From: Gordius sp. MW1
Taxonomy: Eukaryota > Nematomorpha > Gordioida > Gordea > Gordiidae
NCBI GenBank assembly: GCA_964036665.1
Contig: OZ038529.1
Span: 18,484,060 to 18,548,059, forward strand
DNA: 64,000 bases
Direction of reading: 5' to 3'
Shown: in pieces, positions 55 through 27,658 of the stretch
How positions within the stretch are numbered: position 1 is the first letter of the stretch
How the letters are laid out: the number at the start of each line of letters is the position of its first letter
Position numbers and translations under genes: made by a program
Notes under the pieces: generated by a model
What the model was told of the DNA's origin: nothing
What the model saw: the letters and a program-made list of their open reading frames with translations, nothing else
Database searches by the model: none

Positions 55-366
55 GACCAATGTTACACGATCCAAATTCTTGTGCTGTATAAGCGATCTG
101 ACATTCTATTTTCTTATTCGATCCAAAAAATAACGAAGCGTCGATTTCGGTTTTTCGCATTCGGAAAAACACAAATCGTAAGAAATAAACAAAATTTCTT
201 ACTCACGTTTTCATATTGTGATTTCGGTCTCGCAAGGGCAGGTTTTGTAGGGTTAGGGTTAAGTCATTTAGGTTCAAGATACATAATTACTATTTTTGGA
301 TTGAATAAGAAAATGGAATGTCAGATCGCTTATACAGTACAAGAATTTGGATCGTGTAACATTGGC
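55..366. mobile_element. Mutator-type MITE, promoter copy 1
   Basis: Terminal inverted repeats of about 75 bp (55-130 and 293-366, outer motif CCAATGTTACACGATCC) are flanked by a perfect 10-bp direct repeat CATTATTTGC at 45-54 and 367-376. Target duplications of 9-10 bp are typical of Mutator-like elements, which is why I assign it there; there is no coding capacity. The half nearest the gene holds the telomere-like GGGTTAGGGTTA. The element ends 92 bp before the IFT57 start codon. A second copy is at 27337-27658. Confidence 0.85.
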
Positions 367-458
367 CATTATTTGCTGCAGACGACAAAATTTATATGTT
401 TTAAAATAATATACGAGTTTGATGTAATTTGTTGGGATGAAAGAAAAGAATTATAATT

Positions 459-1811
459 ATGGACAAACTTTATAATAGTTTGATTGTTTTGAACTATGGC
501 ACAAAATTTTGCAGGAAATATGGCTTAAATCCAATTGATAGGTAGTGATAATTAAGCATATTAAATAGTTTCGAATAATTACCTTAGCAAGTATTTTTTG
601 CAAAACTCAAATACTGGAGAACATGTTTATATGTTTGTCTCTTTAGCATGTTGGATCATAAAACATATTGATCAAAGTTACAAAATATCCATGCCAAAAG
701 ATTCTGATGATTTAGCTCCAATTATATTAAATATATTAAAATTTTTGCCAAATGATCAGTTTGCAAAGTTTTCAATTAATAGATTGAAATTAGGCTATGG
801 GGAACAAGTTTAAAATATATGTATGGTAACTATAATTGTAAGGTGATTTTGCTTCTCAATATTTTAATTGATATGTGGATATCTAACCAAAATATTGATT
901 GGAACCAATTGAATTTGAATAAAATTGGAGATTTAGGAAAAGATCTTATAATTGACCAGGAAGCTATTCACCATAATTCTATGTCATCCAATTCTGTAAT
1001 TATTAAAATTATTAAATTATATGTAATAATTGATTAATGTTCCATCATTTTTAGTCAGAGTATGAAGATAAAAATGAAACAGAAATAGTTGAAAATAGTG
1101 GTGTTACAGAGCATCAAGCTAATGTTGATAGAAATGAAGACTTTGATGCAGTCATACCCAACTTAAAAACTATTGTTTTTAGTGATGTGGTATAAATTTA
1201 TAATTTATATGCAATTATTTTATATGAATATACATTTCAGAATGGCCTACATGATATTAAAGTGGTAAAAAATTTGTATGAAAATATTACCAATACTTTT
1301 GGTAATTTTGAACATTCATTAATTTCTCTACTATCTAAACACTCAAGTTCATTGGATAATCTTAAAGACAAGGAAAAGTTATCAATATTTTAATAATGAA
1401 ATTAGAATTTAGTGATAATTTTGCTTTTTAGTTAAAATTTTATTTCTATAATTTAGAAAATTGAATATATTGGTTGACACAAATTTTGGAGAGGTAAAAG
1501 ATGCATATCAAAAATATAAGACAGTATTGGCTAATTATGAAATTGTGGATAAAGCATTACAGAATAAGCATCAAACTTTGGATAAAGTAATTTTTTATAA
1601 TATCATTTTTAATGTTATAATGTATAATTTTACATTATTATAGTTGACATTAAATGTCAATGATATAAGAATTGAAATAAAGAAAAGAGTGGATGGCATG
1701 ACTGATACATCTGAATTAGAGAAATCTACCCTCTTGCTGCACCAATTGCAGGAAGAAATATTTGATATGGATATAAAAATCAAATTTTTAACTTCTCTAA
1801 AAGAGCATTAA
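459..1811 (+). CDS. IFT57: IFT57 intraflagellar transport protein, 7 exons
   Basis: Exons 459-541, 588-807, 843-995, 1055-1189, 1241-1377, 1457-1586 and 1644-1811 all have GT/AG borders, keep phase and give 341 residues (human IFT57 is about 429). IFT57 (Che-13/Hippi) is an IFT-B component needed to build cilia. The N-terminal part (about 1-130) has the family signature YMFVSLACWIIK and the later KLGYGEQ, comparable to the family YMF...LAAWLI and LKxGYGEHV. Residues about 195-335 are a charged coiled coil that ends in the family motif region GMTDTSELEK and IFDMDIKIKFL. The ATG at 459 is the first in frame after a stop at 438; a longer N-terminus from an upstream exon cannot be excluded. Introns are 46, 35, 59, 51, 79 and 57 nt. 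Recognition is from the ordered match along the whole protein; sequence identity is low. Confidence 0.85.
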
Positions 1812-1887
1812 ACTTGTAAATTGGCATAATCCCATTAGCCATAACTTTGTTAAAATTATCTGTGTATCTAAAATTATGATTGTACCT

Positions 1888-1893
1888 AATAAA
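1888..1893 (+). terminator. AATAAA polyadenylation signal of IFT57
   Basis: First canonical AATAAA after the IFT57 stop codon, 77 bases downstream, in an AT-rich 3' flank. Context only; the cleavage site is not visible. Confidence 0.45.
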
Positions 1894-2483
1894 ACTATGT
1901 CCAGTATTTTTGTTTTTTGTACATATATTATTACAAAGTGTTGATATTCATATTAAAAAAAGGTCAAGTTTTGTATTAAAAGTGTTTAGGTTTTTATTAT
2001 TAAAAAGTTTTTAGTTTTTTGTGCTAGGATTTTTAATAAAACTAAGGTTTTTGTTAAATTTTATTTTAAAAAGCTAATTCTTAGTTAAATAAAACAAAAC
2101 TTTAAAATTTTTATCATAGTTTACCTTGGTTATCATAAAAAATTGGACTTATATTTGTATGAATGGTAATAATCTCTACTTACTTTTACTGCCTCTTTTT
2201 TAACTTGTCGTATATTTTTTGCCTTTTAAATTTAAATAATAAAATTTAACTACCTTTTAAGATAGTTAAAATTAACTAACTCTTATTCTACAATCACCAC
2301 TATTTTATAACATATAAAATCGATTAAATATTGCTCTTACTGACAAACTTTAAAACTTAATTATAAAAAGATCTTTAAAATTAGCCAGAAATATCGAATG
2401 TCATTTCCTTCTAATCATTATAAACCTTACCGCTTTTGGGTCAAGAATCGGCAAAAGTTTTGAAATTGTAAATATCATATTAA

Positions 2484-3985
2484 CCCTTCATTCACCTTTC
2501 ATTTTTACATCATTCGTTCGGATTTTTGGGTCTATATGACCCATAACTTTAAATCGCTACAATTTCTAAAGTACTAGGAGTTAAAATTTAAAATTTTAGA
2601 CATATATTAAATGATCTTTTGCCAATAATTTGAGCTCTTAAATTTATATTTTTGTTCATAACTTTTTATTTTATCGCTAATTATAACCGACCCGGTAAAA
2701 TTTTAAATTATTTTTCACTGTGTATACTAAATTTTACTTTAACAAAAATCTATCCAATATTTTTAGATATTTTTTACATATTTTTAAAATATAGACTTGA
2801 AGCAAAAAAAAACAAAAAAAAATTATTTAAAATAAATAATGCGAAATATAGATATTTCGGTTTAAATACCATCAACATTAAATTTACATATTTTTTCATC
2901 AAAATATTGGCTAAGTTTAAATTTATATATTTTTGAAAATAATTTAATTTAAGATATAATTTTTTTTTCATTGATTAATATAATTTTCCTCTTTAATTTA
3001 AACCATTAATATAGTTTCTAGCCCTCTTAGTTTTTGTTTTATAAAGTTTTAATGGGGCGCAATTTTTTTGAAGAATTTTTAACAGTGTAACACTTAATTT
3101 TCAATAAAGCCCTAAAAGCAATTTTTAAAAATTAAACTTTTATATTATTTGGAAGTTGCACACAATTAATTTTACAATTTATTGTTTATTCAATAATATT
3201 ATCAGCGTCCTTACAATGCAAACATGTCAGATACATATGAGTTTTACAAATATATTTTTTACAAATAGCGCAATAAGTGCTATGTTTGTTGTGATTTTGA
3301 CATAATTTGCAACGACCTCTAGCTTTTTGGGGGGGCTTATATATCATGTCTAAATACCATAATAATATTTTCCCCCGCCTAAACTTGGCTCTCCTTCATC
3401 TAACTCCGATTCAGATTCACAACTACTAATAGATAAACAGTCATCAGTATCACTTTCTGAGCTACCTAAAAATCTTAAAAACCAAAAAAAAATGTTACTT
3501 CCCCAATCAGAATCTTCAAAAATATCCGAAATTTTAAAAGATTCCATGTGAAAAGAAAAAAAGAAATACGCGGGAACAAATCAGCTGCTAAATATTGGCA
3601 TGGATAAATTCCAGAGGAAACAAAAAGTCAAATTTAAAATCGTCATAATTTACAAAATATATGAGCTAGAGAAAAATTTATTTTTTCGATATCATTTGGG
3701 TATTAGTTTTTATCATTTTAAGCAAAAAAAAAATTTTTTTTTGAAAAAAAAAATATCCTCCGTTCGCTTTAGGGGTCAATATGACTTAAGACGTTCAAAA
3801 AACCATGATATATTTAGAACCAATGGGTGAAAACTAACCAAAATTTGCAGAGTTGTAATATGATAAAATTTGTTAAGCTACTGAAAAATCTGAAGCTCTA
3901 TGTTCATTACTTTTTTTTTCTTGCATGTTTTTAGAAAGGCTTGGGTCATATTGACCCAAAAAGCGTACGGAGGGAGAAGATATTT
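2484..3985. mobile_element. piggyBac-like element, internally deleted
   Basis: The left edge follows TTAA (2480-2483) with a CCCTTCATTC start, as piggyBac elements do. Inside both ends lies the motif TTTGGGTC..ATATGACCC (about 2525-2545, 3947-3962), with a related copy at about 3771-3785. Between them are transposase remnants on the - strand (see 3190-3547). The right edge near 3985 is uncertain, since the outermost bases do not mirror the left end well. The rest of the interval is very AT-rich without genes. Confidence 0.55.
3190..3547 (-). pseudogene. piggyBac transposase remnant: acidic N-terminus joined to Cys-rich C-terminus
   Basis: Reading the - strand, 3547-3350 encodes an acidic Ser/Asp/Glu-rich start (MESFKISDIFEDSDWG..., SSESDTDD) typical of piggyBac N-termini. 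Directly after it, in another frame, 3330-3190 encodes a Cys-rich tail RCKLCQNHNKHSTYCAICKK followed by C.THMYLTCLHC. This has the spacing of the piggyBac C-terminal zinc-binding domain. The catalytic core between the two is missing. It was probably a DDD transposase before collapse. Confidence 0.65.
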
Positions 3986-4034
3986 AAAATATATCTTACA
4001 TAGACTCATAAAACTTAAAATACACGTTTAATTA

Positions 4035-4281
4035 GAATCGGGGTCAAAGTCGCAGAAAAAAAGCAGCAGAATGGGTCAGAACTGGTCAGATCGATTTTAG
4101 ATAATCAATATATTACAATTAAATCTCAAATGGGGAAGGAATTTAATGTGCATCTAACCCTAACCCGAACCTAAAACGCTGACCTAAAACACTAACCCTA
4201 GCCCTAACCCTCCTGACCAATCTTGATCTGACCAGTTCTGACCAATTCTGCTGCTTTTTTTCTGCGACTTTGACCGGTTCC
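4035..4281. mobile_element. Mutator-type MITE with telomere-like core
   Basis: Inverted repeats of about 60 bp (outer motif GGTCAAAGTCGCAG) flank the element. Both sides carry a perfect 10-bp direct repeat CGTTTAATTA at 4025-4034 and 4282-4291. The centre (about 4150-4215) holds degenerate telomere-like CTAACCCTAACCC and TAGCCCTAACCCTCC. Its ends differ from the 55-366 family. Confidence 0.85.
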
Positions 4282-4705
4282 CGTTTAATTATAAGAGGTA
4301 TCATTCCGTTGATGTATTACTATGCTTTATATATACATTTTTTCAGGGACGTAGGCAGGATTGCCTAAAGGAGGGAAGGGGTTTTAAAAAAATTAAAAAT
4401 CAATACTATTAAACAAATTATTACGATTATATATAGACTACCCAATTAAGAAGGGGGGGGGGGTTAATTGTAGTCTAAAAATTTTAGATTAAATAAAAAT
4501 TATATTAATTTAATATCTAGGATGGGTTTTTGGTGAAAAATGCATTAATAATATCTTCAAGGACGCAAATTGCAAAGTACTCTTTATGTTTATGCTATTA
4601 ATTGTTTGAACTAAACACATGCATAAGTCCTTTAGGCTTAATTTGCCCACCAGTACCAAAAATTGATCTGGCCCGAGACCGTTAAAACAAAATTGTAGGC
4701 CCGCC

Positions 4706-5806
4706 TAGTGTTTCGATCTCGTCTCGGTCTCGAAAACAAAATCTCGTCTCGTCTCGGGAGCGATTAGGAAAATCTCGATCTCGTCTCGGTCTAGAAAAAT
4801 CTCGGTCTCGTCTCGTCTCGACTTTAAAAAAAAAATATATACGGAATAAAAATTTCTCCTATTTTATTAAAAATATAAATAAGTGTTCAAAAATCCAAAT
4901 GGCAAATTTTATATTTTTGGAAAAACTTTAATACACAAACTTTTTAAAGATTTAGCGGGACACGACATCTTATTGACAATATAAAGATATGAATTAACTC
5001 ATAAAGATAACATTTTCTATAAAAAGTGCAGACTAAAAAAACTATAAATAAATTTGAAATATAAAAGATTAAATTTTATTGTTCTAGCAAATTATAATAT
5101 TTGTATCAAATTCACTGTGTCTGTCAACTATAAATGGACTTCGAAAATTATAATTTCGCTTATAGTTGATATAGTTGCATAAGTGAGCAAAATGAGACCC
5201 TTTATTAACCTTTGCTAATGATTCAAAGTAGACCTTAACATATTTAAGGCAAATGTTTAAGTCCATTAATATAACCATCATCATTTATAGCCCATAGTGT
5301 TTATTGCATGTTTATGCGAGTGACATTTAATGATGTTATTATTATTTACAGAATTGATAACTAGTTGCAGAAATTAAAACGTTGTAAAACAACAATAAAA
5401 GCAGCATTATTATAGAATTAAGAACATAAGGTTTTAAACTTTAAATTAAAGAGTACGTATTTAAATGTATGACAAAAATCAACACTTAGGTAAATGATTG
5501 CCAAATTTTATTTTTTTTACAAAAATATATAACATTTACTACACTTGGGAATTTTTTTAATATTAAATATATTCCATACATATTGATTTACATTTAATAC
5601 CTTAAATGTAAATTAAAATACACAATAATTTACTAAAATCTAACGATCAATAAAAAGTTGAGATCTCGCCGAGAAACTCTCGTATCGTCTCGTCTCGACA
5701 TCAAAATTCTCGTCTCGATCTCGACTCCATTTTTCAAATTCTCGTCTCGTCTCGTCTCGGTTTTCGAGACGAGACCGAGATTTTTCTCGGTTTTTCCGCA
5801 TCACTA
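4706..5806. mobile_element. hAT element with TCTCG subterminal arrays
   Basis: Ends are TAGTG...CACTA; the flanking 8-mers are GGCCCGCC (4698-4705) and AGCCCGCC (5807-5814), a hAT-size duplication with one change. Both ends carry dense arrays of CTCGTCTCG (4718-4825 and about 5660-5790), the likely transposase-binding subterminal region. The AT-rich interior (4830-5650) has no recognisable transposase, so it is non-autonomous or decayed. Confidence 0.8.
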
Positions 5807-5814
5807 AGCCCGCC

Positions 5815-8131
5815 ACCCCCGCTAATTTTTTTGCAAAGCACGATCATAGCCTACACCCTTCCCGAAAAAGTTAATATATATTCTGCGGCTTTTTAAATAT
5901 TTCAAGACAATACTAAAACAATCATTTATTTATATGTTGAAGATGTTAAATAATCAGTTTCAAGGCTTTTGTTTCTTCTGACAAGCTATGCGCCGTTAAA
6001 ATTTCACTTGTAGCATTAGAAGCTGCATAAAAAAACCATTCTTGATAATTAAATATGCAAGGTTAATTTTTTAAATTAAAATTACCTATTTTGTTAATTT
6101 TTCACCATCCCCTCATTAAAATATAAAAACTCTTGTAATCCACTTATATAAAATACCCAAGTTCTATGAATAAATAACGAACAAAAATTAATATTGATTT
6201 TATTACATTGAGAAGTTAAATAATAAAATCTGATAAACTTAATAAAAAACACCATTTTGCGTATTGTATATTAGAATGCAAAAATAAAAAGATTATTAAA
6301 ATAATTCTGGTGGTCGAAGCCCGAGGCCCGTCCTGAGCTAGTTTTATTACTATAACGATCTTCCAATCCCGGCCCGCTAATTTTTTTAACAAAAAGCCCA
6401 TCGACGCACGGCTTTGGCGATCCCAGCTATATTTGCTTTAATAAAGATAACTATATCATGAACATCAAAAATTAGACTTTAAAAAATCATTCTACTAAAC
6501 CACGAGGAATATTAAGAAATCATCACATCATTTTCGTAGAATTAGCAGGCTCGATTTCTAAAAAAAGAGACAGTATGTTCAAAAATGAAGCATGCATGAA
6601 TGAAATGTACAAAATGCTGTGTAAAATTATCATTTACAGTGAGTATTAATTATTATTTGTCTCTAGTAGTATAAAACCCGCAATTTCTAAAAACAAGGAA
6701 TCTAATTTAAGTCATATTAAAAACTTAGAAAAATAAAATTATTAAAACTAAAATTAGGCGTGTATTAGCACCTTCCTCGTCAATTTTAAAAGTTGAGATA
6801 GTTATTTAGAGAAAAAATTAAGAAATAAATCTATTCTTATAAAAATATCTTTTCAGAACATTAATTATAAAGCAATCCAATTTCTTTGTTTAATATTTCT
6901 AATATGCTATTCATATTATATGTACGCAGGCATGTGTAGTTGGGAACCGATCAAAGTAGCACAGAAATCATCAAACTTCGTCAAATTCATCAAAATTCAC
7001 CAGAATTAATCAGAATAACATATGTTTAGTGATATGGTAAAATTACATAAGCAGTAATATTCGATATGCATACAAGTAACAATGTACCTATGAAATTATG
7101 TTTTTAGATTATCCTTATGTTTTCGACATACGCATTTTAGTATGCAACCGTATACAGAACAGTGCCGTAGCTTGCAACATTTCGCTTGAAGGGCCGAACT
7201 TAAATTTCACACCAGTGGGGATGAATCAATGGCGATCTTAAAAAAATTTCCATAGCCATTATTCAAAATTAATAACCATCTATTCCTTTGTGATTTGTTT
7301 TTTTTCAAAATTCACTTGAACTTGTACCTTTTTAGATCCTTAAGATCTTCCCTTTTTACCTTTGACTTGCACATGAGCATGCGAAATTATAGACCTGCAA
7401 CGGGCCTCTCTAGGTCAATCAGCACGTCTGTTACAAATTATAAACCCCGGGCCGGATCCGAGCCCATTAAGATAATAAATGATAGACCCGGCACGCTAAT
7501 TTTTTCCAAAGCCCGGGACCTTATACAAAAGCTTTTATTTTGCATCTTTTAATATTTTATTTTTATTCTTTTATTGAATAAACAATATATATGTGTTAAA
7601 GGTGTTATGTAATAATCATTATGTAAAAAATTGTATTTATTTAAATAATAAATTAGCCTAGTCTAAAGTTTATAGAATTTTAGAGTGTATGATTGGATTG
7701 GACCAAGTCTATATATAGTATCTAATTAACACTTATCAATTTGGAATGCGCGTTGAGAAGTTTATGAATAAATAAGTAATGTGAAAAATATAATTTTAAC
7801 TTAATTTAGCAAGCTTTAAATAGTTGTAGTTTAATAGAAAATATTATAAAACACCTTAGTTTATAATTTATAATACACAAAAATTAGTTTCAGCAGGTCT
7901 TACTTATATCTTTGCATGGCCCACGCCCGCTAGGTTAAATTACGTTCCTTCCCCAGCCCATTGTTTCCTTTAAAGCAAAAGCTTGCGGGTAATTTTGCTT
8001 AACTATATGCCTCACTTAGATAGATGATTGATGTCCCATATAGAAAATTTAGTACCAAAAACCAGGAATATAATAGTAATTACCTCTATTAAAATATACT
8101 CGAGAATGTTTATTTGCGTCAAAATCCTGCT
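5815..8131. other. Gene-free, GC-motif hAT relics in AT-rich DNA
   Basis: Islands of GGCCCG/GGGCC motifs at about 6310-6410, 7390-7520 and 7910-7990 resemble the GC-rich subterminal arrays of the intact hAT at 47643-48792. At 7390 the string TAGACCTGCAACGGGCC is close to that element's end. I could not pair ends or find target duplications. The rest is AT-rich without supported genes. Confidence 0.45.
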
Positions 8132-8283
8132 CATGGGCGTAGCCAAGGGAAGGTCGGAAGGAGCGGCTGCCCAGTTCTTTAAATTTGAATAAAATTATAG
8201 TTAGATTTACAAAAAGCTATGATTTTGCTACACCCTAAACATTATTGCCCCCCCCCCTTATTCCTATATTGCCTACGTTCATG
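8132..8283. mobile_element. Short hAT MITE, CATGGGCGTAGCC family, copy 1
   Basis: Starts CATGGGCGTAGCC and ends with the complement form TGCCTACGTTCATG, with a C-run near the right end. The flanking 8-mers ATCCTGCT and ATACTACT agree at 6 of 8 positions. Related to the copies at 8544-8692 and 28224-28391. Confidence 0.65.
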
Positions 8284-8399
8284 ATACTACTTTCATATTT
8301 GTGTAATTTTAAATTGCGTCTAACATAAATTCTATGATTAAAACAAATATACATGGTAGAGTAGGTTTAATTACAACAATGTAGATGTTGGACGATCCC

Positions 8400-9090
8400 A
8401 AGTCCGTGTGAATGGAGAGTTGGCGTCTTGTCAAAAACCGGTAAAAACGAACTCCAAAATCATGATAATTTTAAACAAAATATACGACAGAAATCCAAAG
8501 GGTTCTCTACAAACGACGCCCACTAATAGGCTAGGGTTGCTGCCATGGGCGTACCCAGGTTTTGAATTAAGGGGGGGGGGAAACGTTTAAAAGTTCATTT
8601 AGAGGGGGGCAAAACATAATTTTTTTAATTTTTCAATGTTTTTGCATTGAAATTTTTTTTTGTAAATTTTCTCTCCCCTGCGTACGCCCATGGTTGCTGC
8701 CCCACTCAGAACGAAGGCGGTAAAAGAAATTAATTGTGGAAGGAATGCGAATAACATGCTGGAATGTGGGAACATTGACGGGAGGGAGCATCAAGGTCGC
8801 ACAGATGTTAAAAATAATAACATCGCCTGCCTACAAGAGACGAGGTGGAATGGAACCAAAGATAGGAGTCAGGAGAAAGATACAAACTATTTTACAGTGC
8901 TATTATATCGTAGAAACAGGTATTGTTTTAGGCGAATCGTTCAAGGACAGGTGTTGGAAGTCAATCGTTGTTCCGACAGGTTAATATGGGTGAAGATTGC
9001 AAATCAAAGGGGCCTCGTAACCGTTACGTGCGCGTATGCTCCCCAAATTGGGGGTATGGAATCAGAGAAAGACATATTCTTCAATTAATT
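8400..9090 (+). pseudogene. RTE-type LINE, 5' region and endonuclease domain
   Basis: Two overlapping frames between about 8690 and 9088 together encode an APE-type endonuclease start. ITCWNVGTLTG comes first, then CLQETRWNGTKDR, then DRLIWVKIANQRG and TCAYAPQIGG. These match the ordered motifs of RTE-like retrotransposon endonucleases (nicking of target DNA before reverse transcription). Frame changes and stops make it a pseudogene; the reverse transcriptase part is absent after about 9090. A hAT MITE (8544-8692) splits the 5' end exactly. Confidence 0.75.
8544..8692. mobile_element. Short hAT MITE, CATGGGCGTA family, copy 2
   Basis: Ends are CATGGGCGTACCCAGG and the complement ...CGTACGCCCATG. 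A perfect 8-bp duplication GTTGCTGC flanks it (8536-8543 and 8693-8700). It contains a G-run near the left end and a T-rich middle. It lies in the 5' part of an RTE element. Confidence 0.92.
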
Positions 9091-9830
9091 GGAAAAGGAA
9101 ATACCAGGAATAGGAAAGGAAAAAGGCTAATTAATAGAATTTGAAAGCAATTTAAGAGAAAATTTTTATTTAGAGCAATTAATCATAATAAAAATAAGTT
9201 GTAGCTTAGCGATAGCGACGAGTGATACTGGAATAAAAAGGCAAATTAAGGAAGCTTTGTTAATCCAAATTTGATTTGCTACAAAAAATAAATAAAATTA
9301 GATTTAGCACTTGCATGCATTGTGTGAATTTGAGCATGATGTTTTTGTATTATGTCTAGACGGCACGTGTAAATTACGAACAATGAAAGGGTTACACAAA
9401 TTTAAATATTTCAATCCTTTCCATGAAAGTAGCTAGGGACTTGATGGAGAGGTGTTCGGGCAAAGATTAAAAAATTAATATGGGGATGGGTGGCAACATC
9501 AAGTTTCTTAATTTTTAGCATTTTCCTTCAACAATCAAATAAAAAAGTAACAAAATAATACACTATCTAAAAAACTCCCATAATCCCGAATGGTCCGAAT
9601 CTTATCATCGTGTCCGCCCAAAAATCCTCCGGCCCGTGGGCCGGGGGGGGGGGCAGGTTCAGATGGAAAGCCCTTAGGTAAATTCAAAACTTAAGGCTAA
9701 ATCTAAAAGGTTTTAGGAAACCTTAACTCAAAACCTCAGGCTTGTGTTAATGAAACCCCGGTTTTTCCACCACTAAAAGGGTCTATGATCGGTTACAATA
9801 TTAACACTTCGTCCTTGTATATATTCATTA
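9091..9830. other. Gene-free stretch with CCTTAAGG-type relic
   Basis: AT-rich to about 9590, then a GC block CCGGCCCGTGGGCCGG with a G-run (9630-9655) and repeated AACTTAAGG/CCTTAACTC motifs ending TTTTTCCACCACTA (about 9770). The same motifs recur at 12000-12755, so this looks like one end of another hAT-type relic. No target duplication found. Confidence 0.4.
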
Positions 9831-11280: not shown

Positions 11281-11339
11281 GACCTTTTCATTAACTCTCC
11301 AAGTTTGTTATTTACATATCACCCGAAGCACTACCACTA

Positions 11340-15091: not shown

Positions 15092-15911
15092 TAGAGTTGT
15101 TAAATTGCTCGCGTGAGCATTGCTCTGCTCACTATGTGCTTTGGTCGAGCACGCACACTGAGCTATTTTATGCTCGTTAGCACGATGAGTGCTCGCTGTT
15201 CGGTGCAAAAGGCTGAACAGTAGCGTGTAAAAATGCTCGAGAGGCGACTCGAAGCAGCAAAATCTATTAAAGCATTTAGCAGATAGCCCGAGCAGTAAAC
15301 TCGAGCAGATAGCAGATTTAATTGCTACTTGCTATAATTTAGTAATTTACAATATTTGCTCATATTATATTTCATAGATAAATTGAGAACTTTGGGCCCC
15401 TCCCTTTTGTTGTCCCGTTGGTTTGCCCCTCCCCCTATTTTTACCCTCTTTCTCACCCAGGGAGGGGGGGGGGGTGATTTGCCCCCCCCCCTTATTTTTT
15501 ACCTTCTTTTTCACCCGGGGGGGGGGGGAGTGATTTGCCCGGGCCCCGGGTGAGAAAAGGGTAAAAAATAGGGGGGGGGGGGTGGGAAGGGGCAGACCAA
15601 CGGAACAAAAAAAGGGAGGGGGGCAAAGTTCCTAATTTATTTATGATATATAATATGAGCAAATATTGTAAGTTACTAAATTATAGCAAATAGCAATTAA
15701 ATCTGCTATCTGCTCGAGTTTACTGCTCGGACTATCTGCTCAATGCTTTAACAGATTTTGATGCTTCGACTCGCCTCTCGAGCATTTTTATATGCTACTG
15801 TTCTGCCTAGTTCACCGAACAGCGAGCACTCATTGTGCTCGAGCATATTAAACAGCTCAGTGTGCGTGCTCGCATTTGGGGTTGAAGCTAGTTAACAATT
15901 TGACACCACTA
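15092..15911. mobile_element. hAT fold-back element with TGCTCG motifs and poly-G core
   Basis: Perfect 8-bp duplication GGTATGGG (15084-15091 and 15912-15919). Ends TAGAGTTGTTAAATTG and the complement of TAGTGGTGTCAAATTG are hAT-like. The two halves (15092-15500 and 15541-15911) are long inverted repeats full of GCTCGAG/TGCTCG motifs. They meet at a poly-G/poly-C core with TTACC(C/T)TCTTT(C/T)TCACC. No transposase. Confidence 0.93.
15400..15620. repeat. Poly-G/poly-C cassette inside the hAT fold-back
   Basis: Alternating runs of 9-13 G or C separated by ATTTTTTACC(C/T)TCTTT. It is the same cassette that is amplified at 52200-53640. The palindrome centre is near CCCGGGCCCCGGG (15538-15550). 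Confidence 0.9.
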
Positions 15912-16139
15912 GGTATGGGCATATACCAAGAAGTGAGACGAATGATTTAAATCAAAAAGTATTGGACATGGAGGTACCGAGGAATAGAAGAAGAGGACCA
16001 CCTTGTGACACGTGGAAAGGGCAAGCGGACAAAGTCATTAAAAATATACAGATTAAGCAAGACATGGCCCTTACCCAATCAAGATGGAAGAAACTCATTA
16101 AAGCAAGCCTTAACCAAATACTTGATAAATAAGAAAAGG

Positions 16140-16529
16140 AAGTAGCTGTTGGTATTTTTATTACTATATATAAATTATTTAAAAATTAAATAAAACAAAA
16201 TGTTAAATTAATTTAAACAAAATTAGCACACCATCGCGCCCCCCCCCCCTCAAACTTTCATCACTCCGCTGTCCGTCCCGTTGCCTCTAGCACTCCTTTG
16301 GGGAATACAGTATCAGCTTGTTTATCAATAACCACATGCCCAAATGCGCGCAGCTTTTTAACTCTCAATAGACTAAAAACTTATTAAAAATTAGTATGTC
16401 AAAACAAATGGATGGGTATTATTTCAAAGGAAATACTGATATACAATGCTGTTCAGAAGAGAAATTTACAGTGTTTTAAAAACATGTCTACATCTAATAA
16501 CGTTATGTATTAAATTTGATTTCCTAAAC
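16140..16529. other. Gene-free AT-rich stretch
   Basis: 3' flank of the RTE copy with AATAAA-like sequence, a C-run at about 16240 and no supported gene. The last 8 bases (TCCTAAAC) are the target duplication of the next element. Confidence 0.5.
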
Positions 16530-17803: not shown

Positions 17804-17811
17804 TCCTAAAC

Positions 17812-18890
17812 AGTGTTAGAAGATTAATGGAACGGTTTAAAGGAAGGGAAGATGATTTGCATATGTGTTTCTTCGATCTAGAAAAAGCGTTCGATAAAGT
17901 TCCTCCTACTTTAGTGTGGAAATGTCTTAAAGAAAACAATGTGCCAGAATTATACGTCAGAGCAATAAAAGATATGTACAACGGAAATAGAACGTACGTT
18001 AAAACAACGGTGGGGACTACAAAGGGCTTTGCCATTAACACTCCATCAAGGTTCAGCTCTTAGTCCCTTCCTATTTATAATGATAATGGATATTATTACC
18101 AAGGATTTGGGCGAGGAAGCTCCTTGGACAATGATCTTTGCAGACGATATAATCCTCTGTGCCAAAAGTGAACAAGAATTGGCTAATATTGCAAATAGAC
18201 GGGTAAATGCAATAGAAGAAAGTGGTCTCAGGGTAAATCGAAAGAAAATCACATGAAGACAAAGTTTAAATCATATGAAAATCAGCTAAGTGAATCTCTT
18301 ACTCTAGGCGGGTAATCAGCGTGGATTCCATCAAATATTTAGGATCAACACTTTAATCGGATGGTGGAATGGATAAAGAAATCCAATCAAGGATAAATTC
18401 CGGATGGCTCAAATGGAGGAACTTGACAGGCGTTCTGTGTGACAAAAACATTCCAATAATACTAAAAAATGCACTGTATAAATCCATCATACAGCCAACA
18501 GTCCTGTATAGCTCGGAATCATGGGCTATACGTTAAAGGGAAAAGCAGCATCTTGCGGCCATGGAGATGAGAATGGTAAGATGGGTGCTAGGTGTAAGCA
18601 AAAAGGAACATAAGCAAAATAAAGAATAAGAAGAATTTTGGGTACTACATCTATTACGACAAAGCTCATAACAAACAGACTAAGATGGTATGGCCATGTC
18701 GAAAGAAGGGACGATAGCTATGTCGGAAAGAAAATTGAGATGATTTAAAATACGGTACGATATGAAAGTGCACAAGATAAAGAAAGATCTATGTAAATAT
18801 AAAGACAAATGCAAACGAATTCTGAAAGAACTGACCACCAGCTTAGGTGACAAACAGTCATAGAAAGAAGAAGAAGAATAAATAAACGCG
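17812..18890 (+). pseudogene. RTE-type LINE, reverse transcriptase half
   Basis: Encodes MERFKGREDDLHMCFFDLEK and KAFDKVPPTLVWKCL (RT palm start), GSALSPFLFIMIMDII, the catalytic FADDIILCA (YXDD-type box as FADD) near 18140, WLKWRNLTGVLCDKN (18390-18450) and LRWYGHVERRD near 18690. This is the ordered RT core and tail of an RTE-like element. Frames shift at about 18055 and 18260, so it is inactive. The 5' side is cut by the hAT at 16530-17803. Confidence 0.82.
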
Positions 18891-19645
18891 ACCTTATGAG
18901 AAGTACCTAACTCCAAAAAACCACATTAGTAATAAAAGATTACTATATTAAATTCTATAAAATGCTAAAAGAAATGTCATCATTTAATACCAAACATTAA
19001 CATTTGTCAAATTAATTGTCAGGTCTAAAACAAAAATATTAAGTACTAAGCGTAGATTTTACGTGCTTATACGATTTTAGATTTAACATAAAAGCCCTAG
19101 TTTTACCACAAATTCTAAAAACAACGCATTTTTATTAGTTTATATTATAAATTTTGATTTTAAAAATTTATATTTAATACATTATTAATAATAAGAGTTA
19201 AGTTCGCATAAGTGATTATATTTTATAAAGTAAATGCGCATTTTCAACAATAGTCTCAACGTTTCTTCTCAATTTTTTACCAAGTTTGTTAATTGTATTC
19301 GGTTCAATAACGTATATTTCATTTTCATATTGAAGGACGGCATACTAAAAGTATAAATAGTTTTAGAAAAAATTATGAAAATTAAGTCTTTCGTTTACCA
19401 AAGAAATAATCTTTATAATAATTTATCAGGGTAGTACGTATTATATAACGATATTTTTATGATTGAGAATTAATATTGTAATAATAATTTACATTAATTT
19501 TCAAATTTTAAATTAATAACCCTTTCATTTAAAGCCAAATATTACTATATGACTCGTTTAAATCACATAATAATTATTTATGATTAATTTCAGCCTTGAA
19601 ATCATTTAAAGATATAATTTATTTTAAAATTTTTATGCCAACATT
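18891..19645. other. Gene-free AT-rich stretch
   Basis: Very AT-rich with no recognisable repeat or gene. It ends in the 3' flank of the - strand ORF at 19646-20080; AATAAA for that ORF is at 19618-19623. Confidence 0.5.
19618..19623 (-). terminator. AATAAA signal after the orphan ORF
   Basis: On the - strand, AATAAA begins 22 bases after the stop codon of the 19646-20080 ORF. Such close spacing suggests a very short 3' UTR. Confidence 0.5.
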
Positions 19646-20080
19646 TTAATCGAATGGTATAATTACCAATTGGCCTTCTGAAGAGGCATCGACTAATATG
19701 GGATAATTGATATCAGAACCTAGATTAACGTAACCTTTGGCCACATTAAGGCTTTTGTCGGGCAAATATTTGATCAATTTAGGGTAGGCCGCCTTCAGTC
19801 TATTTTTCTCTTGCTTACCTAGCGCCTCAATCGAAAGGTGTATGCACAGTTCCTTAGTTCCGTCATTCAAAGGCACAATAATGTCAGCCTTGGAGGCGTC
19901 ATTATTAAATAAACTGAAATCTATCATGTTGACAGGCTTGATCCCAGCACCTCCTTTCAATTGCAAGCTCGACAAATGCTCTATTACACGCACCCACTCG
20001 GGATAAATTAAATCCCGTTTGGCCGTTAATCCATCTGAAATAGTGTAATAATGCTTAAATTCTACACACTCGCCACTCAT
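19646..20080 (-). CDS. Orphan intronless 144-residue protein
   Basis: Complete ORF starting MSGECVEFKHYY and ending GQLVIIPFD with TAA. I do not recognise a family. The protein is mixed alpha/beta in appearance, without a signal peptide, membrane span, cysteine cluster or low complexity. Its codons are clearly more GC-rich than the flanks, which argues for selection or recent arrival and against a chance ORF. The internal segment DIIVPLNDGTKELCIHLS and the end NYPILVDASSEGQLVIIPF look like beta strands. It has no neighbours within 2 kb that form a unit, and AATAAA lies just after the stop. It could be a small lineage-specific gene, a retrocopy, or a fragment captured from an unrecognised element or virus. 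Confidence 0.55.
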   Translation of the reverse strand: MSGECVEFKHYYTISDGLTAKRDLIYPEWVRVIEHLSSLQLKGGAGIKPVNMIDFSLFNNDASKADIIVPLNDGTKELCIHLSIEALGKQEKNRLKAAYPKLIKYLPDKSLNVAKGYVNLGSDINYPILVDASSEGQLVIIPFD

Positions 20081-21836
20081 GATAATTTGAGATTAATTTT
20101 ATAATAGATTTCATGGGCGTTGTCGAATCTGGTGCAGTTATAATTTTATTACATTTTGATCATTATTTTATTAGATTTTAAAAATTTAAGGATTAAGGGA
20201 AAGTGCCTCCCCCTGGGCTAAGCTTAGGAGCAAAGTAATAATTTTTATATGTAAATCGGATATTACTCATGGTGAAAATACAATTATTATAAGTTTTCTA
20301 ATAAATTTAATACACTTAATCCAAATTAAATGTTGAATTTTATTGAGTTTCTAAAATAAATCATTAAACCTTTATTTAATCAAAAAAGTGACGTAATTTT
20401 GTATAAAACCGGTGCCTTTTAAAAATAAAATGAGCTTTTTACAATTAAAGTTGGACAAAGTAAAGAATCCAATGATTATTTCTATGAATTTAAAGTTTTA
20501 TTTAAATACATGATTCATAGTTTTTCATCAAGTAGCATTAGAATTTTTTTTTGTCAAACAATATTACTCGATTATCAGCTTTTAGTATTATATTTAGAAT
20601 ATTATCTTAAACTGGGTTTTAATATTTACACAATTAAAAAATACACATATACTAATTATACCATAAAACAAAGCCTTACCGCAACGGATGTAGTTACAGA
20701 ATAAAGTCACCGTTAAAATAAGAAATAATAATTTCGACATGTGAATTATTTGATACAAGCTTGTTCAAAGGTGTGTCCTGAAAAAAGGATAAACAATATT
20801 GACCTAAGCGTCCACGGTCCACCCAAGGTATACAAATATGTTAACTATAGACACGCCAATTACAATCCAAAAATATAATAATCTTAAAATAGGACATTTC
20901 ATTTTGGCTCTATAAAAGGGTGGCTCTAAATAATTTTTCGCAGTTTCACAGGTATACTGATTTCAAAATAAACATAATTATATTAAGGGCATTATGATAT
21001 TTATATGTGCATAGTATTTATACATAATGTATCTCAGGGGTATTTCGAAAAAAATAATATTTATTTTTTTTTTTGGGGGGGGGGGGGGTTAAATTATTTC
21101 TATTCATGAAATTAGGTGTCAATCCGAGAATACTACTTTGCCGCTCGCTCGAACCACTATTTTTGATAATCCTATTTTTGTTTAGGAAAAAATATGATTG
21201 CATTTGCAACGTACTAAATATGCAAAGCGTAATGGATGTGATTTCCTAAGCTAATAATAAATTAATACAGTTTGTTATAATCAAATATTATATTTGTGTT
21301 TCCAGGTAATCTAATTAATAGCTAATATCTATTTGCAAATCAAGTTAAATAGATTGAATTTTGGATGAAAATCACTTTTTTCAACCCGAACCGGAAAGCT
21401 TTTGAAATTTTTAACCCGAAACCGACTAGAAAGGGTTTTAAATATTTCAGCTCTACCTTCACCCGTAAGTGAAAAATGCGAATTGAGTTTCAAGAAACTA
21501 CTTGATGCCCTATAATTTGATAAAATATTTATTATAATTATGTATAAATCCACAATTTCGGGGGGCGCAAATTCACCCTTCTCTCTTTTATAATTCGCCC
21601 AGCAGTTGAAAACGATCTCACGTTACTCGAAAAAGTAGGGAGGGCCAGAAAATTGCAAGCTAAAGCGATAAAGTGGGATATTTACAAGAATAGACTCTCC
21701 ACCATTTTCAAATATATTAAATTCTAAAAATTTGAATTAATTAGCTCCACACCTCTCAATATTTATTTACTATTGCATATAAAACTTAGCTTAAACTATC
21801 TAATAGAATGTATTTATGTACTATCAATCCATTATA
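20081..21836. other. Gene-free AT-rich stretch with decayed repeats
   Basis: No supported gene. Features seen: a T-run followed by a G-run (about 21061-21090), AACCCGAA motifs at 21380-21430 also found at 22330-22390 and inverted at 57840-57930, and a TTCGCCCAGCAG segment near 21595. These look like decayed transposon ends. Confidence 0.45.
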
Positions 21837-22061
21837 ATTTATAAAATTAGTTTCCAATAATGGTAGTTTAGGATTGATAAAATGCGAGGGTGGAAATGGC
21901 ACCTTCTCGTTCATTGGTAATTCACATCACTTGTAAGTTACCTTTTTTTTTCTTTTTTTTTATTGATAATGGTCGCTGGACGACCGAAATATCTAAACCC
22001 ATTTCCACCCTCGCATTTTATCAATCCTAAACTATTATTATTGGAAACTAATTTTATAAAT
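21837..22061. mobile_element. Small fold-back MITE
   Basis: Two arms of about 62 bp (21837-21899 and 21999-22061) are near-perfect inverted copies, containing GATAAAATGCGAGGGTGG, around a 100-bp spacer with GTCGCTGGACGACCG. No coding capacity; no clear target duplication, so the superfamily is open. Confidence 0.75.
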
Positions 22062-22585
22062 ATCTATTAGAAGTTAAGTGAGTTTTACTTTCTTATTAGC
22101 ATTAAAATATTACCTTGTTGATACATTTTACCTTTCTTAAGTCGCTGGGGTCAAATTTAAATTTGAAAATTGACATCGAAACAATTAGATATAAATGAAT
22201 AAAAGAAATTATTTAACATAAATTTCGATATTAATTTTAAAAGATATTAGATTAAAAATATATCGTTCTGATTCTGAATTTGTAAAAGTTGCTGTAAAAA
22301 TCATAATCTGATCGGATGCAACATTAAAAAATTTTCACCCCGAACCCGACTCAAAGCCATTTAAAAATTTTAACCCGAACTTGACCTGACCTTGATTAGT
22401 GGGGTCACCCCTGCAATCCACTAATAATAATAGTGTAGCTTAGCAAAATAAAGATCGACCAAATCCTCCTTTTATTTGTCCTTTTAATTTAATCTAATAT
22501 TATTATTTAATTACACGTGCATAAATATATAGATGGGGAAAAATAAGTTTAAAACTTGATAACATTTTTCTACATTATTTCACAA
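22062..22585. other. 3' flank of the NKRF-like gene
   Basis: AT-rich, with an AACCCGAACCCGACTC-like block at 22338-22400. No gene seen. Confidence 0.45.
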
Positions 22586-25500
22586 TTAATCATTAATATG
22601 ACCATCATGGTTGTTGCGTTGTATTTTTCCTGATTTTCTTTTTCTTGGACTTTTTTTGATAGAAATGACACATTGGGAAACCTGTTGTGGTGGCGTGGCA
22701 TTGCGCTTTCGTTTAGATTTTTCAGAATTATCCATGTGAAATTTGTAAGCAGATTTTTTGAGTTTGAAAGTTTTAGGGACCGGCAATTTTGGTTCGCAGC
22801 CTATAAAAATAACGAGTGGCGGAAATACATTCAGGCATAATATAATTTAAAAAGTGAAGATTTAGATAAGGGATAATTATAAAAATTATCCCCTAATAAA
22901 AAATCTGACAAGTTAATTGCTGTTATCAAAACAATATAGAAAAGTTTATAGGGTATCCATTCAATATTCTTTTAGGAAATTTTAAATTCTACGTGCCCTC
23001 ACTTAAATTTTATACATCCCATCCTCGCGTTGGTGTATACTTAAAAATATATTAAATTAAGTTTTAAGCTTCTAAGAGGGAAATCGCTAAGGCACTATCT
23101 GAAAGTTGGTCGTTAATGTTTGAGTTATAGATAGTTATAAAAATGGCTTTTACAGGAAAATTTATATGTGAGGTGATAATTTCTCATATTTTATTGAAAT
23201 AAACTCAAAGTTATATTTTGTAATGATGTTGCTATATTTAATATCACGCAAAAAGACTTATAAAAATTATACACATCCGTGAATCTATGAATGTGATCTA
23301 AAAATGATTAACAGCTTAGAGCAAATGAACAATAAATTTAGCTGAATATTCGCGTAAAGCAATTTTAAAAGACAACAAAAAATTTAAATGAAGGTAGTTT
23401 TAATCAAAAATCACCAATATGTTATCCAGGCAAAAAAGTAAATTAGAAATTATAAGATGATTATCACTTGGAGATGTGGGCAGAGTGGGTGGTTGTTCTA
23501 TGTGTTCTGAATTCGGATTGGCTTCCGGTATTTCAAATTTATCAACAATCACATACAAAAAATCGAGATAATTTAAGTAAGGTCTTAACTGAAGTCTTCG
23601 ATGTTCGCCCTTGCCAACGCTTTTGGTCTGAAAATTAAACTTTCTGGCTATCATATGTATAACTTCCTACATGCACAACAATATAATTTATGACTATTAA
23701 CGCCAGAATTAAGAAATATAACAGTAAAACGCGCATAAAAGGGATTATAGATGTTAGGGTTTAACTAGTATTTCCAAAAACGAAATGCCAAATATTTTGA
23801 GCACGCAATGACGGGAAAAATGCATCTTATATAGCTAAAAATACTAAGGAGAGCTCACGTTGGTCAGATTAAATAAACAATAATCGGGTCTCGGTTTATA
23901 AAAACAACACAAATACTTCAATAACATCCAAACCTTTTTATTTCCCTTTCTTGTATGATTTAGAGAAATAAATTTCAAAAGTTATTCATAATGTGAATTT
24001 TACCCTTTGATTAATGTTAAATTCGTGATTGAAAATAAGGGTATCCAAATTTTTACTAAGCTTGTAACGCCACAAAAAAGTGCGTATATCTTTGGGAAAT
24101 TGCCTTTCTTCGTCGTATTCATTTTGCTTAAAATTTTGAGGATTAAAAATGTGGCAGCCCTGGCCAAATGTTTTGACACCTTGGCTAGATAAGATTTGAT
24201 CCAAAATCTCTAAAAAAAATAATGAGGCGATAAAATGTTTAAAAATCGATAAAGTCAATGCACTTAATGCTTAAACGAACAAGTATTATAATTGAAAAAA
24301 AATGATATTTCAAGATCATGTGGTAAGGGAATAAAATTTAAATTAAAAGCAGTTTTTGCAAACTTTTAGAATAAAAACTACAAACAAGCTGGGATATTTA
24401 CGAAAGTGAAGATCTTAATCAAGATAAAAAAATATAAAAACTATATTAACTCAAAAGTGTTATATACTATTCTCATTTTGGGTAAAAATATGTTAGAGTT
24501 CTTTAGAATAACTTAAACAATCAATAACCCTTTTGCACAAAAAAAAATTTCGAATCACAATTTGGCCAATAATCATTTTTTTCATTGGTCAGTAGCCAGC
24601 GGACGGTCAAAAAGTCATATTATCAATGGTATTAACAAGAACAAAATATTAATTTAATTAAAAAAAAAAAATTTGTCCTCTCCGAGTATTGAACCAGCAG
24701 GTCAGAAAGTTGGAAGACGGAGTCAGAACGTTGGAGGACGGACGGACGGACAACAAAAAGCGAGCCCATAAACGAGGTCATGCAATCTAATTGCAATATA
24801 GACTAAATGCTATCAAAGAACCCTATCATCCAATATTGTCGTGCTATTCTAAAAAACTATTTAAAAGGCACTATTTAGCGTAGAAGTTAAATAAAAGATA
24901 ATATCAAACCCAAATGTGTAATTAAAAAGAGGATTTTTAAGTATGATTCTTCTTCTACCTTGACTGTTTTTTGTTTTGGTTGGTATAACACCTTTTTTCT
25001 TGCCCACATCTCCCCCACTCCACCCCAATTTACTAAGCAATTGCAGACCTTTATTGTGTTCATCAATGCCTATTTCATGAATATCTCTTCGAGGTTTCTG
25101 TTACATTATATACCAATAATATGTAAAAACATAGAATTATCACTTATAACTTGATTATAAATCTGAAATTCTATTTTTTCATATATTAACAAAATATAGA
25201 AGTGATTCAAGAAATAGTTTTACAATGTTAAAAGACACATTTATAATTGCTTCAAGATAAGGTGGAAAGGAGGGGCAAATAAAGTACTTACTGAAGCCTG
25301 TTTTGTGGACACTGCTTTAACAGTTTCAAAGGTAATGTCTGATGTTGGCTCACACGTTTTTTCCTACAAATATTTGATTATTAGCACAATGGAATAATTT
25401 TGACAAAAGAGCATCATACCATAATTATGTAGGAAAAATCTTGCAAAATGTTTAGTAGCTGCAAAGCAACTTGACTTTTAGCATGCATCCTTGATGCTCC

Positions 25501-27242
25501 AATGCTCTCCCACCTAAAATTGTCACCTACAATTAGCTCGCAACTGAAATGTTAAGGAAACAATGGATTAGCAAGCATCTGATTGAACTAGCCATATATA
25601 TATATTAAGGCAAATATGTAAATTCCTATATTAATACTTTGTCACTTAAATAAGTTTAAAGGGTGAAAAAGTTTTCAGGTTTTTATTTGTAAATAGTTAT
25701 GTGTACGTTTTAACCTGCAATTAACTAAAAAAATTAAAATTTAAGCATTCTAACATGCTAAGTTTTGAACAAATATTGTGAAAACAAATTATAAGATTCT
25801 TGACTTTATTCTAATTTGGGGTGATCTGTGAGTTAATAATAAAGATGATACATAAGGCCATTTTTAGGGGGCCAGACCGTTCCACACCCGTTTTCAATTT
25901 TAGGCTGCCCCCAAGTAAACTGATATATTACTAAACTAATTAAGAACACCTTCATGGCCCATGGCCCAAGTTAACCTGGGACCTGAGTGTAGCCAATTTT
26001 TTAAACAAATATCCAAGTACATAGCTAGAATCAATCATGAAACCTTGAAATTTTTCTACCTTAAGTATATTACTATGGAGATTGTTAAATAAATTCAATA
26101 CAGTTTCAATATGTGGATCTATGCTGGCTCATTAATTGATATTATTATAGCATAGTAAAGTTTTTTCTCAAATAACTTGTTAATTTTGTTCTAATAAAAT
26201 GAAATTGCCAATACAATTAACAGTATATGAATAAAAATTTACTGATAAAAAATCATGTAATATCAAAGCAATATAAATAAATTTAAATACATCACATTTG
26301 ATCATAGATTAAAATTACTGTATTTGGCTATAAGGCAATTTTTTGAAAGTAAATGTGTGTTTAATTTTATTTAAAGCAAATGTTGCTTCAATTATTGGGT
26401 GTGTAGAAGTGGTACTACTATATCTAACAATAGAAAACCTGGGGTTAACTGATTTTCTAAAAAGTATTTTAAAGAATGAAGATTTAATTTTACATGTAAT
26501 TTGAGAAGGAGGATTGAGAAATTATATGATTCGGCCTAAACAGTTTAACGTGGTTATTTTCATAAAACATTACAAAATGTTCATTAGATATATGACCATT
26601 CAGCCAATCAATTCCTTTCTCATATGTAATACATGTATCATTAGTGAGTTCATTCAAATGAGGAATTTTAATAGGGTTATTTATGACTTGATTTTCTTTA
26701 TTATCTATATATAAAAAATTGTCATAAAATTGTATTAATCAAAACAAATTTATGTCCATACATAGTTTATTAAATATACATAAAATGGCTACCAAAATTG
26801 ATTATAAAAGTCATTTACAATAAATTTAAACATTCCATCAATTCTAATAAATTATGGCTATACAGATGTATCAACATAAAGATTAACGTAAGATGCATTG
26901 ATGATTGTTATTATTTCAATTTAATACGCTTTGATTTTTGCTCTAGTTAATGTCATTATTAAGGGACAAAAATGTTACTTTGAATATTATTCAATAAATA
27001 ATTTTCTGTTAGGTCTTTGACTTCTTGCGTAACCAATGGTGGATAACTAATTTAAATGAAAAAAAAAATCTAAAAAGTTACCTGCATTTTAGGAATTCAA
27101 TATTTGCATAAATTTTGGATAGGCAAATTAACCTATTCACATTATCAAATTTGCTTAATAAGGTCTCTAAGAATTGTTTTCTGTATTCCCATTCAGTGTC
27201 CGACTCATTTGACTCCCTATATTTAGAGCAGTCATGATCCAT
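22586..27242 (-). CDS. NKRF: NKRF-like protein: XTBD, dsRBD and R3H domains, 9 exons
   Basis: Exons on the - strand: 27242-27082, 27046-26979, 26704-26494, 26456-26319, 25543-25420, 25363-25292, 24207-24004, 23666-23468 and 22800-22586. All borders are GT/AG, every phase fits, and the total is 1392 nt (463 residues). Residues about 15-70 are an XTBD (XRN2-binding) domain: SDTEWEYRKQFLE, then NRLICLSKIYANIEFLKCSY. Residues about 150-225 form a double-stranded-RNA-binding domain ending SRMHAKSQVALQLLNIL. Residues about 311-360 are an R3H nucleic-acid-binding domain, REVIHMIARKFNFQTKSVGK followed by GEHRRLQL. The tail (about 395-463) is Lys/Arg-rich, nuclear-signal-like. NKRF tethers the nuclear exonuclease XRN2 and acts in RNA processing; that role here is inferred from domains. 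I see no clear G-patch, which vertebrate NKRF has. CARF also has XTBD and dsRBD but no R3H. The exon 7 acceptor must be the second AG of AGAG to keep frame. Confidence 0.82.
24545..24800 (-). repeat. GTCCGTCC-family repeat in an intron
   Basis: On the - strand this carries TTGTTGTCCGTCCGTCCGTCC, then a GAGAGGAC-type block, then CATTGATAATATGACTTTTTGACCGTCC and GGCTACTGACCAATGAAAAAAATGA. It is an inverted, shortened copy of 45440-46330. It lies in intron 6 of the NKRF-like gene. Confidence 0.8.
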
Positions 27243-27336
27243 TTTCGCCAATTCGTTGTTGAGGAGTGTTTATTTTTGCTCCGCGCCGATGTTAAACAAT
27301 CTAAAATTTGGGCTATATTAACGTATGTGTTTTTGC

Positions 27337-27658
27337 GGCCAATGTTACACGATCCAAATTCTTGTACTGTATAATATAAGCGATCTGACAATCCATTTTC
27401 TTATTCGATCCAAAAAAAGTAATTATGTATCTTGAACCAATGACTTAACCCTAACCCTAACCCTACAAAACCTGCCCTTGCGAGACCGAAATCACAATAT
27501 GAAAACGTGAGTAAGAAATTTTGTTTATTTCTTACGATTTGTGTTTTTCCGAATGCGAAAAACACAAATCGGCGCTTCGTTATTTTTTGGATCGAATAAG
27601 AAAATGGAATGTTAGATCGCTTATACAGTACAAGAATTTGGATCGTGTAACATTGGTC
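27337..27658. mobile_element. Mutator-type MITE, promoter copy 2
   Basis: Same element as 55-366, inverted in the window: ends CCAATGTTACACGATCC and its complement. Flanking 9-mers TGTTTTTGC (27328-27336) and TATTTTTGC (27659-27667) differ at one base. It contains AACCCTAACCCTAACCC (27447-27465 area). It begins 94 bp upstream of the NKRF-like start codon, with the telomere-like block on the gene side, as at IFT57. Confidence 0.85.

What the first reader, a model, noticed from the sequence alone, without database searches (positions are those of the whole stretch)
55..27658. Same MITE placed 92 and 94 bp upstream of the start codons of both host genes, same orientation
Copies at 55-366 (before IFT57, + strand) and 27337-27658 (before the NKRF-like gene, - strand) end 92 and 94 bp from the ATG, each with the TTAGGG-like block facing the gene. 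Both recognisable host genes carry one and no other copy is seen in 64 kb. Mutator-type elements are known to favour 5' ends of genes; a conserved distance and orientation could also mean the element supplies promoter or start-site sequence (a mobile promoter).
Basis: partly seen in the sequence, partly recalled or inferred. Interest (0 to 1): 0.72.

Follow-up and report, generated by a model that had tools for sequence, protein, structure and literature searches.

The report
Two copies of ordinary Mutator-type MITE
A small jumping-DNA element sits just in front of two genes at nearly the same distance, but sampled copies elsewhere in the genome sit in introns, behind genes and in other repeats in both orientations, so the matching positions look like coincidence and not a portable promoter.

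Summary
Two copies of one roughly 315-bp inverted-repeat element lie at 55-367 (+) and 27337-27658 (-), each with a 9-bp target duplication. They end 91 and 94 bp before the start codons of an IFT57 gene and an NKRF-like (XTBD) gene, in the same orientation; no third copy is found.

The element is a MITE of the Mutator (MULE) superfamily: terminal repeats of about 75 bp, 9-bp duplications in 64 of 81 copies (shuffled control mean 0.06), 263 central-sequence matches genome-wide, about 2% divergence. A 5.7-kb relative with similar ends carries a decayed MULE-type transposase.

The generalisation fails. Outside the window, 2 of 79 copies lie within 400 bp of a recognised start codon, at 26 and 364 bp, one in each orientation. 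Others lie in introns (SNRNP200, DCUN1D, AMDHD2) or downstream of genes (DTD, SMIM30-like). Gene-relative orientation is 9 same, 7 opposite. Coding-like ORFs point away 85 times and towards 98 times; start codons show no peak at the window distances.

Best reading: chance placement of a young MULE MITE. Promoter activity was not testable; profile hits lean mildly to the 5' side (9 to 5), so a modest 5' preference stays open.

The parts
55..367 (+). MULE-type MITE copy 1, 313 bp
46..54 (.). left target-site duplication of copy 1, ATTATTTGC
368..376 (.). right target-site duplication of copy 1, ATTATTTGC
55..130 (+). left terminal inverted repeat of copy 1
   Evidence: 57-129 pairs with 293-365 at 95.9% over 73 bp
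293..367 (-). right terminal inverted repeat of copy 1, facing IFT57
248..260 (+). TTAGGG-like block in copy 1
   Evidence: contig ends read here are TTAGGG repeats
459..541 (+). first coding exon of IFT57, start codon at 459, 91 bp from the element (exon end read by eye)
1055..1808 (+). region with further IFT57 exons
   Evidence: PF10498 2.7e-5 for 1644-1808, below its cut-off; no match for 1055-1192 alone
27337..27658 (-). MULE-type MITE copy 2, 322 bp
27328..27336 (.). target-site duplication of copy 2, TGTTTTTGC
27659..27667 (.). target-site duplication of copy 2, TATTTTTGC (8 of 9)
27445..27465 (-). TTAGGG-like block in copy 2
27081..27242 (-). first coding exon region of the NKRF-like (XTBD) gene, start codon at 27242, 94 bp from the element
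23403..25551 (-). region with further NKRF-like exons (R3H, dsRNA-binding-like; G-patch by eye only)

Best explanation
The element is a non-autonomous, internally deleted Mutator-superfamily transposon (a MULE MITE) that spread recently to some 260-280 copies, moved by the transposase of longer relatives with the same kind of ends. Insertion into a 9-bp staggered target left 9-bp duplications. The two window copies are independent insertions that happened to land about 90 bp before two start codons in the same orientation and were tolerated there. Shown: terminal repeats, duplications, copy number, low divergence, a longer relative with a decayed transposase, varied gene contexts. Inferred: that a MULE transposase mobilised it in trans, that the equal spacing is coincidence, and that the genes still use their own start-site sequences.
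For: Genome counts: 263 matches to the central pattern, 561 to a terminal pattern (two per element), 0 for the reversed controls. A 9-bp repeat with at most one mismatch at one fixed offset flanks 64 of 81 copies; with right flanks exchanged between copies the mean is 0.06 and the maximum 1 in 500 shuffles. Mean pairwise divergence is 2.05% in 79 copies, with 66 identical pairs. L103 (5.7 kb) has ends 84-96% like the MITE and a MULE-type RNaseH-like fragment; L104 has one end 77% like it and a MULE domain at 5.7e-17. Gene contexts vary in distance, side and orientation. Coding-like ORFs within 600 bp, score above 4: 85 point away from the element, 98 towards it. ATGs at right-side offsets 93 and 96, those of the window genes: 2 each against a mean of 1.49 per position; left side 0 and 2 against 1.52.
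Against: Four of 81 copies (2 of the 79 outside the window) lie within 400 bp of a recognised start codon and none within 400 bp of a certain stop codon (a sorting nexin at about 290 bp is possible). Among the ORFs within 700 bp that were scanned with Pfam, recognisable non-transposon genes pointing away outnumber those pointing towards, 9 to 5 without the window XTBD gene (143 and 147 ORFs; binomial p 0.42). Both fit a modest 5' preference. Short first exons are easily missed. The sample leans to copies most like the queries, so older copies are under-sampled; the two window copies rank 76 and 78 (from 0) of 79 in distance from the majority.
Confidence: 0.88

Rival explanations
1. The element prefers the open chromatin of promoters, so 5' flanks are over-represented without any fixed distance or orientation.
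For: Four of 81 copies lie within 400 bp upstream of recognised start codons: IFT57 91, NKRF-like 94, GLA 26, RBMX2 364. Pfam-recognised genes within 700 bp point away 9 times and towards 5 times outside the window. In yeast assays 68% of Muta1 and about 80% of Os3378 insertions fell in genes or within 1 kb of them (passages of PMC5225508).
Against: Outside the window it is 2 of 79; for an assumed 15,000 genes in 212 Mb chance gives about 2.2. ORF scores show no excess pointing away (30 to 31 for scores above 6). The 9-to-5 excess is within chance and includes several intron copies. Of 18 gene-associated copies 4 are 5', 10 intronic or probably so, 4 downstream (one of them uncertain).
Confidence: 0.25
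2. The element is a mobile promoter: its ends supply a promoter or start site at a fixed distance to the gene in front.
For: Near-equal distances and equal orientation at the two window genes. MULE terminal repeats can hold promoters (start of abstract of PMC3310237 in the listing; passage of PMC6446971). A TATAAG stretch lies in each terminal repeat, and the NKRF-like leader has no upstream ATG.
Against: No shared distance or orientation elsewhere in the sample. Three ATGs lie between copy 1 and the IFT57 start, one 22 bp before it and out of frame, a burden for a transcript that starts in the element. No expression data.
Confidence: 0.04
3. The two loci share an ancestral duplicated 5' region, so distance and orientation were copied together.
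For: Equal spacing and orientation. One other pair of loci (L085, L101) does share both flanks, so such duplication occurs in this genome.
Against: The two window leaders and following exons show only short chance matches and their duplications differ.
Confidence: 0.01

Closest known systems
Animal MULEs and their non-autonomous derivatives, e.g. Muta1 of Aedes aegypti (PMC5225508, passages read)
   Same: 8-9-bp duplications, terminal repeats shared with over 300 putative non-autonomous derivatives, no apparent target sequence preference
   Different: Here terminal repeats are about 75 bp (about 370 bp in the longer L103), the core carries a TTAGGG block, and no intact transposase was identified; sequences were not compared
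Spectre MULE of Myzus persicae (PMC6446971, passages read)
   Same: 74-bp terminal repeats and a short duplication around a MULE transposase
   Different: 8-bp duplication; sequence not compared here
MULE-like insert 0.4 kb upstream of rice PsbS1 (PMC4178011, title and start of abstract in a search listing)
   Same: a MULE sequence upstream of a gene, examined for an effect on expression
   Different: about 2.7 kb, plant, one locus
mPing of rice (recalled; title listings only)
   Same: short, young MITE known near gene 5' ends (recalled)
   Different: another superfamily, PIF/Harbinger (recalled)

Membership tests
Mutator (MULE) superfamily | 8-11-bp target-site duplication | tested here: met
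   64 of 81 copies with a 9-bp repeat, at most one mismatch, at one fixed offset; shuffled control mean 0.06, maximum 1. The 8-11-bp range is from PMC6446971
Mutator (MULE) superfamily | terminal inverted repeats, often long | tested here: met
   about 75 bp at 92-99% in the copies scored; 385-bp inverted match at 87% in L103
Mutator (MULE) superfamily | relative with the same ends that encodes a MULE (DDE, RNaseH-like) transposase | tested here: met
   Met only in decayed form. L103: ends 84-96% like the MITE and a PF21056 fragment at 2.6e-4, below its cut-off. L104: PF10551 5.7e-17 and PF21056 1.5e-27, with one end 77% like the MITE and the other not found. No intact coding copy was identified
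MITE | short, non-coding, homogeneous, many copies | tested here: met
   75 of 81 copies are 309-318 bp between CCAATG ends, too short for a transposase; 263 central matches; 2.05% mean divergence
Mobile promoter | constant distance and orientation to gene starts across copies | tested here: not met
   orientation 9 same to 7 opposite outside the window
Mobile promoter | transcription starts inside the element | not testable with these tools
   no expression data

The most novel reading that the evidence does not exclude
A few old gene-side copies, the two window copies among them, have been kept because they now provide start-site or regulatory sequence for their genes, with the telomere-like TTAGGG block as a binding site for a host factor.
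Probability: 0.05. Interest if true: 0.55.

Novelty: new member of a known kind. Interest (0 to 1): 0.17.

Why it matters
Two equal spacings in one window suggested a portable promoter; sampling the genome shows that the pattern does not hold. What remains is a young MULE MITE family with a telomere-like core, useful for annotation and perhaps as an insertion marker. Whether single copies affect their genes is a separate question that start-site data could settle.

Tried and rejected
Self-trained codon scoring of ORFs locked onto GC-rich sequence and was dropped; an amino-acid composition score, under which exons of IFT57 and the XTBD gene ranked 20 to 202 of 522, replaced it. A candidate gene start about 29 bp from the L066 copy, opposite orientation, was not counted: the ORF gave no NCBIfam match, was an unnamed member of the Pfam scan A1 with no match I could assign to it, another ORF of the locus gave no Pfam match, and two joined pieces gave at best E 0.37 in the PDB. 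If real it would be a third 5' copy outside the window. ADAM-like (L006) and annexin-like (L050) exons were read by eye without library support and are left out of the counts. L059 lies beside a decayed H2A.Z-like sequence and is left out of the 18 gene contexts, though it is one of the 9 genes pointing away in the Pfam tally. PDPR-like, EPS15-like, actin-related, TTF2-like, actin, CCAR1-like and USP copies are called probably intronic only because an internal exon is seen on one side. The right-side ATG count has its largest value, 8, at offset 242 and the left side reaches 6 at three offsets; not followed up. The exact terminal pattern gave nothing in the viral and prokaryotic collections, which may leave out records near this genome. 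No annotated or random control loci were obtained; the chance expectation rests on an assumed gene number.

Rows dropped before counts: of loci L001-L102, 14 repeat a copy already held, among them L101, which shares both 50-bp flanks with L085 at another place; 8 loci (6 copies: L009, L015/L016, L018, L019, L028/L029, L038) lack two ends by the script's rule. 80 loci give 81 copies: 48 with flanks up to about 1.5 kb, 33 with about 0.6 kb. 79 of 81 (lengths 290-330) were used for divergence. ORFs for searches were filtered by score above 2.6, length of 28 or more, distance under 700 bp, and a list of transposon-like strings chosen by eye.

Full report
With the ends fixed by the target duplications they span 55-367 (+) and 27337-27658 (-). 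The first is flanked by ATTATTTGC on both sides, the second by TGTTTTTGC and TATTTTTGC. The IFT57 start codon is at 459 and the NKRF-like start codon at 27242 on the - strand, so 91 and 94 bp separate element and start. Both genes are supported by profile matches. Blastn of both copies against the window finds no third, and the other coding-like ORFs that I looked at in the window read as transposons or repeats (by eye).

The element belongs to a large young family. The genome (211.8 Mb, 12 contigs, unnamed) holds 263 matches to a 36-base central pattern and 561 to a 37-base terminal pattern, with none for the reversed controls. I parsed 81 copies with both ends; 75 are 309-318 bp long between the CCAATG ends. 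The main length classes, 309-310 and 315-316, differ by about 6 bp, the size of one TTAGGG unit; the two contig ends that I read are TTAGGG repeats. Of the 81, 64 have a 9-bp flanking repeat with at most one mismatch at one fixed offset, against a mean of 0.06 (maximum 1 in 500) when right flanks are exchanged between copies. A looser rule that allows other lengths and offsets finds some repeat in 78 and none in 3. Mean pairwise divergence of 79 copies is 2.05%. Around 55 duplications there is a weak palindromic tendency (C three to four bases before, G-rich just after) and no strong motif.

The family is of Mutator type. L019 and L009 share the first 180 bp of the MITE and then an internal sequence that occurs at other places. 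L103, 5.7 kb, has ends 84-96% like the MITE and a 385-bp terminal inversion at 87%; inside are an ORF fragment with a ZSWIM1-3 RNaseH-like match (E 2.6e-4, below the cut-off) and a hAT-like ORF with DUF4371. L104, found through the same internal sequence, carries a MULE domain (5.7e-17) and one end 77% like the MITE. No intact transposase with these ends was identified; only two long elements were read.

Gene context, 18 copies. Within 400 bp upstream of a recognised start codon, four: IFT57 (91 bp, same orientation), NKRF-like (94, same), alpha-galactosidase A in L064 (26 bp from the terminus, opposite) and an RRM gene that I read as RBMX2 in L056 (364 bp, same; first exon by eye). In introns with exons on both sides, three: SNRNP200 in L094 (BRR2 plug 3.2e-6 on one side, the other exon by eye), DCUN1D in L080 (9.6e-7 and, below the cut-off, 0.0018), AMDHD2 in L078 (NagA 3.2e-6, below its full-length cut-off, on one side, the other by eye). 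Probably intronic, an internal exon on one side, seven: PDPR-like L073 (DAO 2.1e-4, below the cut-off), EPS15-like L014 (EH 3.5e-9) and actin-related L051 (2.8e-8), TTF2-like L012 (SNF2 8.6e-39), actin L049 (7.1e-25) and CCAR1-like L020 (S1-like 8.1e-10), USP L065 (UCH 4.9e-8). Downstream of genes, four: DTD in L046 at about 0.7 kb and a SMIM30-like gene (DUF4730; name recalled) in L030 at about 0.63 kb, a small heat-shock gene in L005 at 1.36 kb, and a sorting nexin in L072 at about 0.29 kb that could also be an intron case. Further copies lie within or beside transposon-like ORFs (L024, L058, L073 by eye). The finer gene names are my reading; the profile matches are as given.

Orientation relative to the gene in these 18 is same in 11 and opposite in 7; without the two window copies 9 and 7 (binomial p 0.80).

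Direction tests. Coding-like ORFs within 600 bp, all 81 copies: 85 point away from and 98 towards the element at scores above 4, 30 and 31 above 6. Pfam scans of 143 ORFs pointing away and 147 pointing towards, within 700 bp, gave 10 and 5 recognisable non-transposon genes; without the window XTBD gene 9 and 5, p 0.42. This leans to the 5' side but is within chance and includes introns. Start codons by distance: at the right-side offsets of the two window genes (93 and 96) 2 copies each, one of the two being the window copy, against a mean of 1.49 per position; on the left 0 and 2 against 1.52.

A 5' preference of moderate size is not excluded. Two of 79 copies outside the window lie within 400 bp of a recognised start; for an assumed 15,000 genes chance gives about 2.2, but recognition is incomplete, and a possible third case (L066) could not be identified. 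The promoter reading has little support: no shared distance or orientation elsewhere in the sample, and three ATGs between copy 1 and the IFT57 start, one 22 bp before it and out of frame, though the NKRF-like leader has none. Expression was not testable.

Literature seen: passages of PMC5225508 and PMC6446971; listings with abstract starts for the other papers named. None of those three searches looked for this family by host, which is unnamed, so I make no claim on whether it is in print.

Noticed in passing
genome: e.g. G000:C7:6519378/6524241, C1:3787309/3792158, C3:21125586/21133541, C4:7533622-7546267: In a capped list of 128 MULE-domain matches several come as pairs in opposite orientation some 2-19 kb apart, as if the transposase gene lay in both arms of larger inverted structures.
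   Followed up: no
window 248-260 and 27445-27465; L105, L106: The MITE core holds two or three TTAGGG-like units, the repeat also seen at the two contig ends read; the main length classes differ by about one unit.
   Followed up: partly
L085 (G000:C4:9647785-9649397) and L101 (G000:C6:20846298-20847815): Two MITE copies on different contigs share both 50-bp flanks, so one was carried along in a larger duplicated stretch.
   Followed up: no
window 52114-53714 and 15419-15532: Arrays of G- and C-homopolymer-rich units of about 60-70 bp that form a large inverted repeat.
   Followed up: no
window 62549-63472: Direct repeat with 244-bp spacing, copies about 94-97% alike.
   Followed up: no
window 35328-39888: ORFs that read by eye as retrotransposon polymerase and integrase between direct repeats 35328-35612 and 39605-39888 (94-98%), which look like terminal repeats.
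   Followed up: no
L054: Two MITE copies in the same orientation, 32 bp apart between CCAATG ends.
   Followed up: partly
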